From the IMG/VR virus record IMGVR_UViG_3300047408_000041, positions 1-35,424 of that record: a stretch of DNA of 35,424 nucleotides; one strand, written 5' to 3'. Of the stretch, positions 17,540 to 35,424 are shown piece after piece. The translations under genes and the position numbers were made by a program. Numbering within the stretch: position 1 is the first letter of the stretch; each line of letters opens with the position of its first letter. The DNA is from a virus. The notes under the pieces are model-generated. The model ran no database searches. It had not been told where the DNA came from and saw only the letters and a list, made by a program, of their open reading frames with translations.

Positions 17540-17614
17540 GTGTGCCTCCTCACTCTCTCTCTGGTATTTATCTGCACTTTACTGCAATTCTGTGGCCTTT
17601 ACTACGGGATGCAC

Positions 17615-17649
17615 AGAGCCTGCAGGCAATCCAGGCAGCTGCAGGCTCT
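17615..17649 (-). terminator. Hairpin separating replication and late genes
   Basis: AGAGCCTGCAG (17615-17625) pairs perfectly with CTGCAGGCTCT (17639-17649) around a 13-base loop. It lies between the MazG-like gene stop and the first late gene. No clear T-run follows on the minus strand, so it may be an attenuator or processing site. Confidence 0.5.
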
Positions 17650-17656
17650 GAGATCT

Positions 17657-17672
17657 GGGCTAATGTTAGCCC
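17657..17672. promoter_or_regulatory. 16-bp palindrome GGGCTAATGTTAGCCC
   Basis: Seven-base arms surround TG, in the 153-bp gap ahead of the late genes. It could be a binding site or the first part of a compound terminator with the adjacent hairpin. I find no consensus promoter in this gap. Confidence 0.35.
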
Positions 17673-17692
17673 TCCAGTCGTGCTAGTGTCAA

Positions 17693-18130
17693 TTACACAG
17701 GATCCGGCTCACCCTCATGCTCTGCCACACCCTGGGCATCCGGCTCGCCCCATTTTCTCTGGATATTCCTGCTCATTTTAGCTGCCACATAATCCTCCAG
17801 CTGGAGGTGGATATAGCCAGCCATAGCCAGAGCCAGGATGGTGACATCAGCTGTCTCACCCATAATGCTGGCCAGTGTCCGGCTCACTGCTGGGTGTTTT
17901 TCCACTGAGAGCTTTACGCTCTCCTGAATGTGGCACTCCTCCAGGCCACAGGCCAGGGCCAGCTCTGTGGCCTCCCTCACCAGGTGGAGGGCAATGCCCT
18001 GGTGCGTATGCTCTGGGAATGTTTTTGAGGCCCACCTGTCCACAAAATCCTGCCACCAGGCCAGGAGCATCCTGGCATCAGCATCTGTGCCCACTGGCCT
18101 CTGGGCACTGTAATTTGTACGTATGCTCAC
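17693..18130 (-). CDS. MazG-like nucleotide pyrophosphohydrolase
   Basis: A 145-aa all-helical protein. The pattern LVREATELALACG followed by IMGETADVTILALAMAG and AAKMSRNIQRKWGEP is that of MazG/DUF550-type enzymes: a metal-binding ExxE-like helix, an E-x-x-D helix and a K-x-x-x-N-x-x-R-x-W end. Such phage enzymes hydrolyse dNTPs or NTPs, and some counter ppGpp-based host responses. The start is GTG 18130, with the ribosome-binding site GGAGGTACTAAG inside the end of the preceding gene and a GTGA overlap with its stop. Confidence 0.7.
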   Translation of the reverse strand: MSIRTNYSAQRPVGTDADARMLLAWWQDFVDRWASKTFPEHTHQGIALHLVREATELALACGLEECHIQESVKLSVEKHPAVSRTLASIMGETADVTILALAMAGYIHLQLEDYVAAKMSRNIQRKWGEPDAQGVAEHEGEPDPV

Positions 18131-19990: not shown

Positions 19991-20899
19991 CTATAGGTGT
20001 CCGGTTTTCCTCAATCGTTTGGCCTGCTCTGGGCTCAGGTCTGCCCACCTGCTCTCATCCTCACTCACAGGCAGCATGAGCCTCAGTGGGAGCTCTTTGG
20101 GCCTCTCCAGAGGGTATGAGCCCTCCAGCTCCAGCTCCTGGGCACCAAAGGCCTGCAGAGCCTCCCTGTGCCTCACTGGATCCAGCTCTGCACCTATGTA
20201 GCTCCTGCCCATTGCCCTGCAGGCACGTGCCAGGGAGGCCCTGGATCCTGAGTACAAATCTATCACTAAATCTCCGTGTTTGCACGCCATGTCCACCAGT
20301 CTCCTGAGGGCCAGCTGTGGTTTTTCTGAGTGTCCACCTCTGGGTGCTGTCCAGGAATTGCTGGCCTCAGTGCGTGCCTCTGGGTGGCCCCTGGTATACA
20401 GGAGGAGGAGCTCTGCATTACCTCTAAAATGATAGCCCACACCTGAGCTCATCCCTGTCTTATGCCAGCTGCCTCCAGAGACATACCTCCAGCCTCTCTG
20501 CTCATTTGGATGGTTATTTGGCCAGCAATTGAGGAGCTGGGAGCTCCACTGCATCCACTCCTCCAGCTTTGGGAATGTGCACCACACCTGCAGATAGCTG
20601 TCCAGTGCAGCCACCTGGTGGGCCTGTTTGAGGTGGCCCCATATACTCTCCATACCCAGGCCATCGTATTGCCCAGAGGCCAGGCCTCTCTGCCTCCTCT
20701 TGCTCTGGCCTCTGGTGCCATCACTGTACACCCAGGGAGGATCTGCCATCACCAGGGTGGCCTTTGGCAGCTGCTGGGCCTCCTGCAGGGCCAGCACTCT
20801 CTCCAGCATTAGCTGGCAATCAGTCTGCCATATCACCTGCAGAGGCCAGGTGTCTGGCAGCTGCAGCTCCTCACCCTGCAGCACTTTAGCTTTGCTCAT
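19991..20899 (-). CDS. DNA methyltransferase, probable N6-adenine, beta class
   Basis: A 302-aa protein. Motif IV is DPPW (residues 53-56, MADPPWVYSDG) and motif I is C-terminal, LVIDLYSGSRASLARACR, so the order is that of beta-class enzymes. HSEKPQLALRRLVD near residue 194 is the usual linker before motif I. The aromatic DPPW favours adenine N6 over cytosine C5. It could protect phage DNA from restriction or modify host DNA. It is unlikely to cause the CpG depletion, since that would need a C5-cytosine enzyme. Target sequence unknown. Confidence 0.85.
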   Translation of the reverse strand: MSKAKVLQGEELQLPDTWPLQVIWQTDCQLMLERVLALQEAQQLPKATLVMADPPWVYSDGTRGQSKRRQRGLASGQYDGLGMESIWGHLKQAHQVAALDSYLQVWCTFPKLEEWMQWSSQLLNCWPNNHPNEQRGWRYVSGGSWHKTGMSSGVGYHFRGNAELLLLYTRGHPEARTEASNSWTAPRGGHSEKPQLALRRLVDMACKHGDLVIDLYSGSRASLARACRAMGRSYIGAELDPVRHREALQAFGAQELELEGSYPLERPKELPLRLMLPVSEDESRWADLSPEQAKRLRKTGHL

Positions 20900-27519: not shown

Positions 27520-27951
27520 CTACTTTTGCACAATCCACTGCAGGATTTGCACATCTGCTCTGCCCTCACCAGGTGGAAAATAGGCACGTGCAGAGTTATA
27601 GTCCACCTCCAGCACCAGGCCCTCTGCTAGGTGCCTGGCCCTGTCCTGAGGTGCAGAGCAATCCACCACCTCATAGGTGGCCAGGTGGCCATTTACCTCT
27701 GCCTGCACGCTCTCTCCCAGTCGTGTGCAATCTGGCACTGAGGCCATGTGAGCCCTCACTGGCAGGCCTCTGTGTCGTGCCACCCTCTCCATTACACCTG
27801 GGCTGTAATACTTGCCTATGCCCACCTGCAGAGGCTGTATGCAGCACTGAGGCATCCCTGGCACCACTGGGATGGCAGGAGCCTCCTGGAGGCCCTGTGG
27901 AGGGCTCAGGAGGCTCTGGATCCAGAGTACCAGTATTATGAGCCAGCTCAC
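27520..27951 (-). CDS. Secreted barrel-like protein (possible RlpA/DPBB-like)
   Basis: A 143-aa protein with an N-terminal signal peptide (MSWLIILVLWIQSLLS), probably exported. The mature part has YYSPGVMERVARHRG, then a beta-rich region MASVPDCTRLGESVQAEVNG, YEVVDCSAPQDRARH, and LVLEVDYNSARAYF. The pattern (Cys-containing strands, a VVDC motif and a final VDY-A strand) recalls small double-psi beta-barrel proteins such as RlpA, which act on peptidoglycan, but this is tentative. ATG overlaps the previous gene (ATGA). It is the third gene of the early operon, so it could act at the cell envelope early in infection. Confidence 0.65.
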   Translation of the reverse strand: MSWLIILVLWIQSLLSPPQGLQEAPAIPVVPGMPQCCIQPLQVGIGKYYSPGVMERVARHRGLPVRAHMASVPDCTRLGESVQAEVNGHLATYEVVDCSAPQDRARHLAEGLVLEVDYNSARAYFPPGEGRADVQILQWIVQK

Positions 27952-28730
27952 CTCTGGCCTTTGCCTCTGCCTCTGGCCACCTGGTATGTACCAGGCAGCT
28001 CCACCACCTTTGTGGCAGGCTCAGGAGAGCACAGGCCTTTGGCCACCTGGATGCACTGGAGAGCTGTGCCTGTGTCCTCTAGGATGTCGTGCAGAGGGTG
28101 GCCTATGCCCTCCAGCCACCTCTCCACCTCTCTAGGGCCATAGGCAGCAAACAGCCTGCCACCCACTCTCACCTGCACCAGGGCCTGCCCACACGTGCAG
28201 GGCACCCACTGGCCCTCAGGGCCTGCAGGAGCCTCCATCAGGGCCAGCTGGCCCTCCAGATAGCCTATGGGATCTGCCATCTGCCGGCCACTGCCCTCCA
28301 GGTGGGCCTGTGGAGCTGGAGCTGGAGCCTGCTGGGCAGGTTTGTCCAGGCCATAGGCCCTCTCAATCTCTGCCCTGCTCACCATCCTCTGTTTTTTCTT
28401 TGGGTGCCTACTCCATCCAGGTGTAGGATAGGATTTGATATAGCCCAGGTTGATCCTGGTGCTAATGGTGTTTGGGTGCCTGCCCACCAGTTTGGCAGCT
28501 CTGGCAATCGGGATGAGATCTGTGGGCACGCTCTCTCCCTGGTGCGTGCCTGCCTCTGCCTGCCTCATCTGCCCAGCGTGGAATGCCAGGCCATGCCAGT
28601 CTTTATCTGTGATCCACCTGCTGGCCCTGTGGCAATTCGTGCAGGTGGCCCTGGCCAGCTCTGCCTGGATCTCCAGCAGCACTGTGCCTTTGCCTCCACA
28701 AAATCTGCAATTTGCGTTTGTCTGTATCAT
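27948..28730 (-). CDS. Zinc-ribbon plus helix-turn-helix regulator
   Basis: A 260-aa protein from ATG 28730, with GGAGGTACAAAAA upstream; starts further upstream would include this site. Cys8, Cys11, Cys30 and Cys33 form a zinc ribbon. A helix-turn-helix of excisionase/MerR character follows (LIPIARAAKLVGRHPNTIST, then RINLGYIKSY), then an Ala/Pro-rich linker. The C-terminal domain starts near WVPCTCGQALVQVRV. Likely a DNA-binding regulator of the early region. Binding sites unknown. Confidence 0.7.
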   Translation of the reverse strand: MIQTNANCRFCGGKGTVLLEIQAELARATCTNCHRASRWITDKDWHGLAFHAGQMRQAEAGTHQGESVPTDLIPIARAAKLVGRHPNTISTRINLGYIKSYPTPGWSRHPKKKQRMVSRAEIERAYGLDKPAQQAPAPAPQAHLEGSGRQMADPIGYLEGQLALMEAPAGPEGQWVPCTCGQALVQVRVGGRLFAAYGPREVERWLEGIGHPLHDILEDTGTALQCIQVAKGLCSPEPATKVVELPGTYQVARGRGKGQR

Positions 28731-28761: not shown

Positions 28762-30300
28762 TTATAGAGTGATGTGGAGCTCCAGCTCACCAGCTCCCTG
28801 CAGGGTGGCCCACTCTGTGAGGCCCACCACCAGAGTATCTATACTGCCACTGTGGTGGAAAATGCGCCTGGTGGTGGGCAGGCCTTTGAGCTGGGTGCGA
28901 TAGTCCAGGCCTGTGCCCTCTTGATCCCTGGCAATCTCTGCCAGAGCCACCACAGGCCTCATAGCAGGTGGCACCCTGTCTGGTGAGGGCCTGCCTGGGA
29001 GCTGTGAGCTCTCAGAGGCCCTGAGCTCCTCCAGCTGCACTGCCCACTGAGCTGTGTTTGCCATCATTTGCTGGTACTCCTCCTCTGTGAGGCCCTCTGC
29101 CAGGGCCAGCTCTGCCATTAGGCCATCCACTGGTGCAGGCTGTGGGCCTTTGGAATAGTCCCACTCAGATTGCCCTGGGAGCTCCTGAGAGAGCCCAGGA
29201 GCCTCTGCAGGCTGTGAGGGTGCGTGATAGGTGCCCACCACCTGCCAGTATTGCCTCTGGCCAGTGCAGATATACTCCAGGCCTTTGGCCAGGGAGGCCT
29301 CCACCTCCTCTGCCTCAATTTTCCTGAGCCTCCCACAGGCAGGGCACTCCAGACGGATCATAGGCACCTGCACAGATTTGGTGGATCCCCAGCTCTCCAC
29401 CAGCTTTGTGCCCTGCACCCTGCAGAGCATCCGCATGATTGCCGGATGCTCACCCTCTGCCCTCCAGGCCCTGGCTCTCACCTGGGCCTCCACCTCTGGC
29501 CAGTTGCCAGTGCACAGAGGGCACTCTGTGCCCTCCAGGTGCTGGAATAGGCAATTAGGGCACTCCACCACTGCAGGGAGGCCCTCAGAGGCCTGTGGGA
29601 GAGCTGCTGTGACAGCTGCCAGCAGCATTGCACGCACATCCTGTGGCTCTGTGTCCTCATCCTCCAGCTCCACCAGCACCTCTGGCTCCTCCTGGCCCAC
29701 CAGCACCTCATCTGCCAGATTGCCTGTGCCTCCACACTCCTCACATACCACATTTGTGCCAGAGCTCTCTCCACCCTGCCAGTGATAGCCATGCCCTGTG
29801 CACCTGGTGCACTGCTGGTATGTCTCCTGAGGATTGCACTGGGTGCAGGGCACTTTGGTGAGCTCCTCTGCTTTGAGGCCCACTCTCACCCACCTGTACC
29901 CATTCGTGCAGAATGGGCATTCGCGCATCCTGGCCTCCCTGGCCTCTGCCTCTGCCTCTGCCTCCTCCTGAGCCTGGGCCTCCAGGATGGCCTCTGCACC
30001 ATCCCTGGAGGTGTGCCGTGTCTGCATTACCCAGGCCACATCCCTCTCATAAGAGAGGGCCTGCTGTGCTGCCTGATAGCCAGGATCCTGCTCACCCAGC
30101 CTATTCACATACAGGATGCTCACTCCCATCGCTTTGCCCTCCTCACTCTCCCTGAGCTCCAGAGCCCTGATGGGCACTATCAGCCTGTAAATACCCAGGG
30201 TGCTGTGCTGTGACCACAGGCCTCTCACCACTGCCATAGGTGCCTGGTACTTATCAGCTGCCTGCTCTGCATTCCTCTGTCTCTTATAGTAACCGTACAT
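28762..30300 (-). CDS. Multi-zinc early protein with DnaJ-like CxxC array
   Basis: A 512-aa protein, the first gene behind the consensus promoter. Cys pairs lie at 128/131, 152/155, 164/167 and 186/189, the last two in CTRCTGHGYHW and CEECGGTGNL, as in the DnaJ Cys-rich domain with two zinc sites. A second ribbon has 247/250 and 260/263, and a further pair is at 319/322 with another Cys near 345. Before these, residues 101-127 are an Ala/Glu helix. The C-terminal third is helical and ends in a beta-rich piece. There is no J-domain, so it is not a chaperone DnaJ. The role may be host takeover or RNA/protein binding (inference). GGAGGTACTAGAAA precedes ATG 30300. Confidence 0.75.
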   Translation of the reverse strand: MYGYYKRQRNAEQAADKYQAPMAVVRGLWSQHSTLGIYRLIVPIRALELRESEEGKAMGVSILYVNRLGEQDPGYQAAQQALSYERDVAWVMQTRHTSRDGAEAILEAQAQEEAEAEAEAREARMRECPFCTNGYRWVRVGLKAEELTKVPCTQCNPQETYQQCTRCTGHGYHWQGGESSGTNVVCEECGGTGNLADEVLVGQEEPEVLVELEDEDTEPQDVRAMLLAAVTAALPQASEGLPAVVECPNCLFQHLEGTECPLCTGNWPEVEAQVRARAWRAEGEHPAIMRMLCRVQGTKLVESWGSTKSVQVPMIRLECPACGRLRKIEAEEVEASLAKGLEYICTGQRQYWQVVGTYHAPSQPAEAPGLSQELPGQSEWDYSKGPQPAPVDGLMAELALAEGLTEEEYQQMMANTAQWAVQLEELRASESSQLPGRPSPDRVPPAMRPVVALAEIARDQEGTGLDYRTQLKGLPTTRRIFHHSGSIDTLVVGLTEWATLQGAGELELHITL

Positions 30301-30365
30301 TTTCTAGTACCTCCGTTTGGTTTGTATTGAGTGTCGTGAGAGGCTCTCATCTGCCTCCCACACTC

Positions 30366-30394
30366 ATTATATCTAATCACTAATCGGGTGTCAA
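30366..30394 (-). promoter_or_regulatory. Perfect sigma70-type promoter TTGACA-17-TATAAT
   Basis: On the minus strand, -35 TTGACA (30389-30394) and -10 TATAAT (30366-30371) have an exact 17-base spacer. The spacer contains the box ATTAGTGAT (30376-30384), so a factor binding it would cover the promoter. Transcription would run into the 512-aa gene. Confidence 0.85.
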
Positions 30395-30408
30395 TAGCAA
30401 TCACTAAA

Positions 30409-30448
30409 ATGCACTGAGCTCTGGTGGCAAGTCCAGAGCTCAGTGCAT
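30409..30448 (-). terminator. Strong terminator hairpin ending the lysis operon
   Basis: ATGCACTGAGCTCTGG (30409-30424) pairs perfectly over 16 bp with 30433-30448, 8-base loop. On the minus strand it is followed by TTTTAGTG. It lies between the glycoside-hydrolase-like stop (30487) and the early promoter, so it insulates the two units. Confidence 0.75.
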
Positions 30449-34026: not shown

Positions 34027-35424
34027 CTAGGTGTATATTTTACGTCCGGCCACCCTGGGTGGCCCCATCTGCATATTACCAGGTGTGCCTGTTTTCGTGA
34101 TCTGCACCTCAATCCACACATCTCCTGTCACAGTAGGATTGTTTGAGAATGATGTCATGGGTGCAGGGTGTGCCCAGGTGTCGTGTGCTGTTAGGGAGGT
34201 ATTGAGGGTGCCCATACTCAGGGTGCCAGAGCCACTATTGAGCCTCCTCAATTCTATAGTCCAATAGCTCAATCCGCTGTTTGTAGTGTATACAAAATAG
34301 CTGATGTCGAATTGAGTTATTAGCATACCGTTTTTGCCATCCAGCGTGCAGGCAAATACCTCTGTGTTTGCACTATATGGCTGTGCACCCAGATAGGTGG
34401 CCATAGGCAGGAGCTCCTCTGCACCCAGCCACCTGGTGCCATCACTCTCCAGCACCAGGCCTGCCTGGGCTATTACCTGCCAGTTTGCATTATCACTCTG
34501 CACTGCCACCACTTGATTTTTTTCTATCAGTGGGTATGTGCTAATACCATCAATCAGCTGTGAGGAGGTGGTGGCCAGTGTCACCTTTGCAGCTCCTCCA
34601 GTATTTTTGATTATGTACACCCTGCCACCTATGCCCACAGCTGTGGGCAGGGTGGCTGTGAATGGTGAGAGAGAGCTGCACAGGTACACTGTGGCACTGC
34701 TGTCCAGGGTAAAGCCTGCAGTTTTTGATATTGTGGTGAGGCCTATGGTATCCAGTCGTGCCAGTTTGGCAGCTGTAATGCTGGCATCTGCCAGTTTGGG
34801 TGTAGTGATTGCCAGGGCCTTTACATCCTGTGTCCTCACCTCTGCCCTGAATACCAGGTTATCTATCCACTGGTACTGGCCTGCAGCTGTAAAGCCTCCA
34901 GGCCCTGTGATTTTCAGTCGTGCATACCTGCTATTTGGATAGGCAAATATCCCTCCGTTTGCATTCTGCTGGCTCCAGGTGGAGGTGGTATTGTTTGGCC
35001 CTGTTACACCACTCACAGAGCCCAGGAATGCAAAGTTAACATCGTAATAGTCCACCTCAAATACATCAGCAGGCAGACTGGCATCAGATCTGCCATCCGC
35101 ATCCAGCAGGTATGATTTGCTCCCATCCACTCTAAAATAATCACTAATGATTGAGGGTGGTGTGCCTCCTGCAGAGAGTTGATCAAACCGTATGGAGTAA
35201 TTGCCATCAGAGGCCTGGCTATTATCCCAGAGTACATGGCCATTGCCTGTGCCGTTTGAGAGTGTCCACCCATCTGGGCTCACAGGCCCTGGCCTCCTCT
35301 CCAGCCACTCAAAGGATGGATTGTACAGCTGCTCATGCACCCTGCCAGCTGTCGTGCCACTCACCAGAGCAGCTGCACCTAGATGGCCATACCCATCTAT
35401 TGCCTGCACTGTGCTGGTAAAGGC
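34027..35424 (-). CDS. Tail-tip hub/receptor-binding protein, C-terminal part
   Basis: This is the same gene as 1-2158, continued across the contig ends. The frame is open to the end of the window and joins position 127 through the repeat. Within this part are the end of the third fibronectin-III-like repeat, and a jelly-roll region reading NPSFEWLER, then SDGNYSIRFDQLS, similar to carbohydrate-binding modules. Next comes a repeat-rich part (ITTPKLADASITAAKLAR), and a typical phage-fiber end domain with LIDGISTYPLIEKNQVVAVQ and SDNANWQVIAQAG. The final 130 residues form a beta-rich terminal domain. Stop at 34027. A methionine at 35409 is internal, not the start. Confidence 0.85.
   Translation of the reverse strand, partial: AFTSTVQAIDGYGHLGAAALVSGTTAGRVHEQLYNPSFEWLERRPGPVSPDGWTLSNGTGNGHVLWDNSQASDGNYSIRFDQLSAGGTPPSIISDYFRVDGSKSYLLDADGRSDASLPADVFEVDYYDVNFAFLGSVSGVTGPNNTTSTWSQQNANGGIFAYPNSRYARLKITGPGGFTAAGQYQWIDNLVFRAEVRTQDVKALAITTPKLADASITAAKLARLDTIGLTTISKTAGFTLDSSATVYLCSSLSPFTATLPTAVGIGGRVYIIKNTGGAAKVTLATTSSQLIDGISTYPLIEKNQVVAVQSDNANWQVIAQAGLVLESDGTRWLGAEELLPMATYLGAQPYSANTEVFACTLDGKNGMLITQFDISYFVYTTNSGLSYWTIELRRLNSGSGTLSMGTLNTSLTAHDTWAHPAPMTSFSNNPTVTGDVWIEVQITKTGTPGNMQMGPPRVAGRKIYT
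35298..35424. repeat. Terminal direct repeat, right copy
   Basis: Identical to 1-127. It marks the overlap at which the contig circularises to 35,297 bp. The extra copy is probably not present in the real genome. Confidence 0.95.

What the first reader, a model, noticed from the sequence alone, without database searches (positions are those of the whole stretch)
28762..30300. Large multi-zinc early protein with a DnaJ-like Cys array but no J-domain
At least seven CxxC pairs lie in one 512-aa protein, the first gene behind the best promoter. This layout is unusual. Early genes often redirect host functions, so this is a good candidate for an undescribed takeover or anti-defence factor.
Basis: partly seen in the sequence, partly recalled or inferred. 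Interest (0 to 1): 0.7.

Follow-up and report, generated by a model that had tools for sequence, protein, structure and literature searches.

The report
Orphan zinc-rich early phage protein
The first gene behind the strongest promoter of an unnamed bacterial virus encodes a protein studded with zinc-binding-type motifs that has no recognisable relatives; it is probably an early regulator, but nothing found here shows that it attacks the host or its defences.

Summary
ORF 28762-30300 (-) is a real 512-aa gene with 16 Cys and 7 CxxC pairs (chance mean 0.46). It sits directly behind the only 12/12 sigma70-type promoter of what looks like a complete 35.3-kb tailed-phage genome (127-bp identical ends), after a strong terminator-type hairpin and at the head of a roughly 12.7-kb early operon. 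It is an ORFan: no convincing relative was found in Pfam, NCBIfam, PHROGs, PDB, phage and plasmid collections, IMG/VR or bacterial and archaeal genomes, at the sensitivity available.

'DnaJ-like' is only superficial: no J-domain, two of four strict CxxCxGxG motifs, sub-threshold hits. Unit 1 (126-160) resembles unit 2 (161-197) and the N-terminus of the next gene (zinc ribbon plus HTH-like region), which favours tandem zinc ribbons. A tempting similarity to lambda-Q/YdfT antiterminators reduced, in an independently built model, to the zinc module alone.

Best reading (about 0.4): a multi-zinc-ribbon early regulator acting with gene 2. Host takeover or anti-defence is untested. AlphaFold gave no usable model. 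A more striking side finding is near-total loss of GANTC, GGWCC, GGGCCC, CpG and other words, suggesting intense restriction pressure.

The parts
28762..30300 (-). the ORFan multi-zinc-type protein, 512 aa, pI 4.8
29710..29919 (-). Cys array 1, aa 128-197: CPFC-CTQC-CTRC-CEEC, read as two tandem zinc ribbons
   Evidence: unit 1 v unit 2 P=0.004 with Cys fixed, uncorrected for 10 comparisons
29512..29562 (-). Cys array 2, aa 247-263 (CPNC..CPLC), short anti-TRAP-like knuckle pair
   Evidence: anti-TRAP E=1.1, not significant
29263..29346 (-). Cys array 3, aa 319-346 (CPAC...C), incomplete ribbon
30366..30394 (-). 12/12 sigma70-type promoter (TTGACA-17-TATAAT)
30402..30448 (-). terminator-type hairpin closing the late/lysis unit
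   Evidence: -30.7 kcal/mol, z -8.1
30337..30360 (-). hairpin near the 5' end of the early transcript (function unknown)
   Evidence: z about -2
27948..28730 (-). gene 2: zinc ribbon (CRFC..CTNC) plus a region that looks like a helix-turn-helix, 260 aa from ATG at 28730; probable partner
17663..17692 (-). late-type promoter 10/12; perfect inverted repeat GGGCTAAcaTTAGCCC over its -10

Best explanation
A non-enzymatic, modular multi-zinc-ribbon protein made first in infection. It most likely works as an early regulator: its zinc ribbons dock on nucleic acid or on the transcription machinery, and with the zinc/HTH-type gene 2 protein made from the same transcript it controls the single 12.7-kb early operon and/or the switch to the late-type promoter at 17692. 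Shown: gene, Cys content, promoter, gene order, absence of recognised homologs. Inferred: zinc binding, early timing, regulatory role, partnership with gene 2.
For: First gene behind the only perfect promoter, downstream of a strong terminator-type hairpin. Genes follow head to tail to the late-type promoter with one minus-strand terminator-like site (20449-20434) in between; the scan as a whole finds terminators at about the chance level. 7 CxxC pairs against 0.46 by chance. Array unit 1 resembles the gene 2 N-terminal ribbon (P=0.0055 with Cys fixed), and gene 2 weakly matches an excisionase/transcription-regulator family (E=0.007). Zinc modules of this look occur in phage transcription regulators: lambda-Q/YdfT-type antiterminators carry 2-4 CxxC motifs with comparable long-short-long spacing (ours 24/12/22, YdfT 35/13/26). 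No enzyme family scores convincingly.
Against: Overall acidic (pI 4.8), unlike a typical nucleic-acid binder, although aa 263-326 are richer in Lys/Arg. No recognisable DNA-binding fold in the protein itself. Repeat P-values are not corrected for 10 comparisons. No homologs, so conservation of the Cys residues cannot be shown. Both structure predictions failed (pLDDT 37.5 and 43.7).
Confidence: 0.4

Rival explanations
1. Host-takeover or anti-defence protein (for example anti-restriction) made first to disarm the cell; the zinc ribbons bind a host protein.
For: Promoter-proximal early position; acidic; the genome shows loss of many restriction-type words, so the host probably restricts heavily; generic Lar-like zinc ribbon (E=0.02, 15.6 bits against cut-off 28.6).
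Against: No family evidence. The Lar similarity is no better than that to other zinc ribbons. Site loss suggests evasion by avoidance rather than by a protein.
Confidence: 0.2
2. Accessory DNA replication or recombination protein using zinc ribbons to bind DNA or a replication partner.
For: Shares its operon with a replication-initiator-like protein, a resolvase and a methyltransferase; partial DnaJ-like Cys motifs are known inside HMO-2011-type phage DNA polymerases (PMC9038755).
Against: No polymerase, primase, helicase or nuclease signature; lies at the far end of the operon from the replication genes; acidic.
Confidence: 0.2
3. A divergent lambda-Q/YdfT-type antiterminator.
For: phrog_127 matches aa 57-193 colinearly: 24.0 bits, E=5e-5 on aa 50-201; scrambling or reversing aa 50-127 drops it to 10.6-12.6 bits in 7 controls.
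Against: A model built here from 8 real Q proteins finds only the zinc module; aa 1-127 score -0.5 bits and native aa 50-201 score no better than 200 scrambled controls (9.5 v mean 10.6). Neither end of the Q profile is matched. Lambda Q sits at the end of the early region (established knowledge), this gene at its start. The PHROG model also rings in 13 of 14 control genomes at a lax threshold.
Confidence: 0.07
4. A J-less DnaJ-like chaperone or co-chaperone.
For: Two strict CxxCxGxG motifs; DnaJ family hit at E=0.16 over aa 150-196.
Against: No J-domain and no other DnaJ domain found; Cys spacing differs from DnaJ (from memory about 17/22/14); alternative pairing favoured by the internal repeat.
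Confidence: 0.03

Closest known systems
Lambda-Q/YdfT antitermination family (phrog_127, Pfam Antiterm PF03589)
   Same: Multi-motif DnaJ-like zinc module with long-short-long spacing; phage transcription context
   Different: Q N- and C-terminal regions not recognised; twice as long; first rather than last early gene; two further Cys arrays
DnaJ central domain (PF00684) and anti-TRAP
   Same: CxxCxGxG-type knuckles
   Different: No J-domain; only 2 of 4 strict motifs; spacing 24/12/22; hits below cut-off
Lar restriction-alleviation zinc ribbon (PF14354)
   Same: CPFC ... VxCxxC-type ribbon in unit 1 and a similar one in gene 2
   Different: Sub-threshold (E=0.02 and 0.096); the Lar model has only 58 positions
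Zinc/HTH-type proteins in the capsid relatives L035 and L090
   Same: Several CxxC knuckles; HTH-like region like that of gene 2
   Different: No significant sequence match to this ORF; similarity judged by eye

Membership tests
DnaJ/Hsp40 | J-domain with HPD | tested here: not met
   no Pfam hit; no HPD in the sequence
DnaJ/Hsp40 | four CxxCxGxG repeats | tested here: not met
   strict motif only at Cys 164 and 186; PF00684 16.0 bits against cut-off 32.7
Lambda-Q/YdfT antiterminator | zinc module of the family | tested here: inconclusive
   Cys fragment 13.3 bits; phrog_127 24 bits on aa 50-201
Lambda-Q/YdfT antiterminator | Q N-terminal and C-terminal regions | tested here: not met
   no match to profile 1-45 or 197-253; aa 1-127 -0.5 bits
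Lambda-Q/YdfT antiterminator | antitermination activity at the late promoter | not testable with these tools
   needs a transcription assay
Lar restriction alleviation | PF14354 above the curated cut-off | tested here: not met
   15.6 bits against 28.6
Zinc-binding proteins in general | binds zinc through the Cys pairs | not testable with these tools
   7 CxxC pairs only suggest it

The most novel reading that the evidence does not exclude
The protein is the founder of a new class of phage early factor: a multi-zinc-ribbon protein that reprograms host RNA polymerase (processive antitermination or early-late switch) with a zinc/HTH-type partner, unrelated to N, Q or other known antiterminators.
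Probability: 0.12. Interest if true: 0.6.

Novelty: new member of a known kind. Interest (0 to 1): 0.3.

Why it matters
Early orphan genes of phages are a proven source of factors that bind host machinery (general knowledge). This one has the highest CxxC count of any protein in its genome, a clean transcriptional setting and a testable partner gene. By itself, an orphan zinc-ribbon protein is ordinary for a phage. If it proved to act on RNA polymerase or on restriction it would be a new tool and possibly a new regulatory class.

Tried and rejected
Homolog searches for the ORF: Pfam, NCBIfam, PHROGs, PADLOC (112), PDB sequences, phages by tblastn up to E=10, plasmids, IMG/VR patterns of the whole protein and two fragments, genomes, whole records of relatives: nothing convincing. 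The scans by peptide pattern reach only close relatives, so distant ones may exist. Relatives found through portal, terminase, capsid and DUF932 share structural genes or the DUF932 gene but no homolog of this ORF; the nearest, L002 (terL 73%), is a 10.6-kb fragment that does not reach the early start. The Q-antiterminator lead looked real with scrambled controls on the PHROG model (69) but failed with an independently built Q model. Structure prediction, full length and aa 120-205, was unusable, so no fold search was run. Gene 2 searches in phages and IMG/VR found nothing. Rfam: nothing in the window. A search for prophage relatives of the capsid in genomes, to learn the host, found nothing; the host is unknown.

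Full report
OBSERVATION. The ORF is real and correctly placed. It has 16 Cys and 7 CxxC pairs; whole-protein shuffles give 0.46 on average and never more than 5. No other window protein has more than 2. Codon bias supports this frame only. The sole 12/12 sigma70-type promoter of the window ends 65 bases upstream of the start codon, after a 16-bp hairpin with a short T-run.

GENOME CONTEXT. First and last 127 bases are identical, so this looks like a complete phage genome of about 35.3 kb. Essentially all genes run on the minus strand: early genes from 30300 down to about 17.7 kb (this ORF, a zinc/HTH-type gene, DUF932/phrog_1362, replication-initiator-like, DNA methyltransferase, resolvase), a late-type promoter at 17692, then terminase, portal, protease, capsid, tail, and lysis round to 30487. 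'Early' therefore rests on gene order and promoter, not on expression data.

ANATOMY. aa 1-127: no match when searched alone, ending in a long E/A-rich stretch that the low-confidence model draws as a helix. aa 128-197: CPFC, CTQC, CTRC, CEEC. aa 247-263: CPNC, CPLC. aa 319-345: CPAC and a lone Cys. aa 361-512: no match. Local alignment with Cys positions held fixed gives unit 1 v unit 2 P=0.004 and unit 1 v gene 2 P=0.0055, before correction for 10 comparisons. Corrected, both are about 0.04-0.06, so the tandem-ribbon reading is favoured, not proven. The fragment model draws a beta-hairpin between CPFC and CTQC, at pLDDT about 50-65: weak support at best.

KNOWN FAMILIES. No hit passes any curated cut-off. 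DnaJ membership fails (no J-domain, two strict motifs). Such J-less DnaJ-like arrays are not new in phages: the YdfT-type Q proteins carry them and HMO-2011-type DNA polymerases contain a partial DnaJ central domain with two CxxCxGxG motifs (PMC9038755). The Q family was tested carefully. The PHROG model gives 24 bits to aa 50-201, and scrambling or reversing aa 50-127 lowers this to 10.6-12.6 bits. But a model built here from eight Q proteins gives 13.3 bits to the Cys fragment, 9.5 to aa 50-201 (200 scrambled controls: mean 10.6, maximum 18.3) and -0.5 to aa 1-127. The two results conflict on the N-terminal part; the conservative conclusion is a shared zinc module only.

HOMOLOGS. None found in any collection. 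Because the large scans use exact peptide patterns, this shows no close relative, not no relative.

MECHANISM. The main reading, an early regulator acting with gene 2, rests on position, shared ribbon type and the zinc/regulator theme, and is an inference at about 0.4. Anti-defence stands at 0.2: the phage avoids many restriction words, so restriction probably matters to it, but no result ties this protein to it.

VERDICT. A true and tidy observation, an orphan of unproven function, of moderate to low interest on present evidence. The genome-wide word avoidance deserves its own follow-up.

Noticed in passing
whole window: Near-total loss of restriction-type words. Against synonymous-codon shuffles of 25 genes: GANTC 1 v 59.9, GGWCC 0 v 37.6, GGGCCC 0 v 10.1, CCATGG 0 v 5.9, GCATGC 0 v 7.6, CG 234 v 864. 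CpG observed/expected is 0.13. Suggests a host with many restriction systems.
   Followed up: partly
whole window, coding (minus) strand: One-orientation avoidance: GTCC 0 (shuffles 45.6) while GGAC is 82 (105); also CTCG 0 v 87.5, CCCC 1 v 75, CCAAT 0 v 26. Recalls the strand bias of T7 for type III restriction sites (from memory).
   Followed up: partly
L002 1-10619 (IMGVR_UViG_3300018757_000017): Nearest relative (terL 73%, capsid 70%) shares loss of GANTC (1 v 23.3), TTAA (2 v 17.5) and others but not of GGWCC (16 v 13.7) or CTWAG (21 v 16.7); CpG o/e 0.53. Avoidance seems to differ between close phages.
   Followed up: partly
17613-17692 (-): Perfect inverted repeat GGGCTAAcaTTAGCCC (17672-17657) over the -10 of the late-type promoter, followed by a 12-bp leader hairpin without a T-run.
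   Followed up: partly
17693-18130 (-): Weak match to dATP/dGTP pyrophosphohydrolase PF04447 (E=3e-4, 21.2 bits, cut-off 23), a family linked to modified-base phages (from memory).
   Followed up: no
19991-20899 (-): N6/N4-type DNA methyltransferase (PF01555 41.7 bits; DPPW motif); target unknown, could be protection against host restriction.
   Followed up: no
1-127 and 35298-35424: Identical 127-bp ends: terminal repeat or circular assembly.
   Followed up: no
30337-30360 (-): Hairpin at the very start of the early transcript (z about -2).
   Followed up: no
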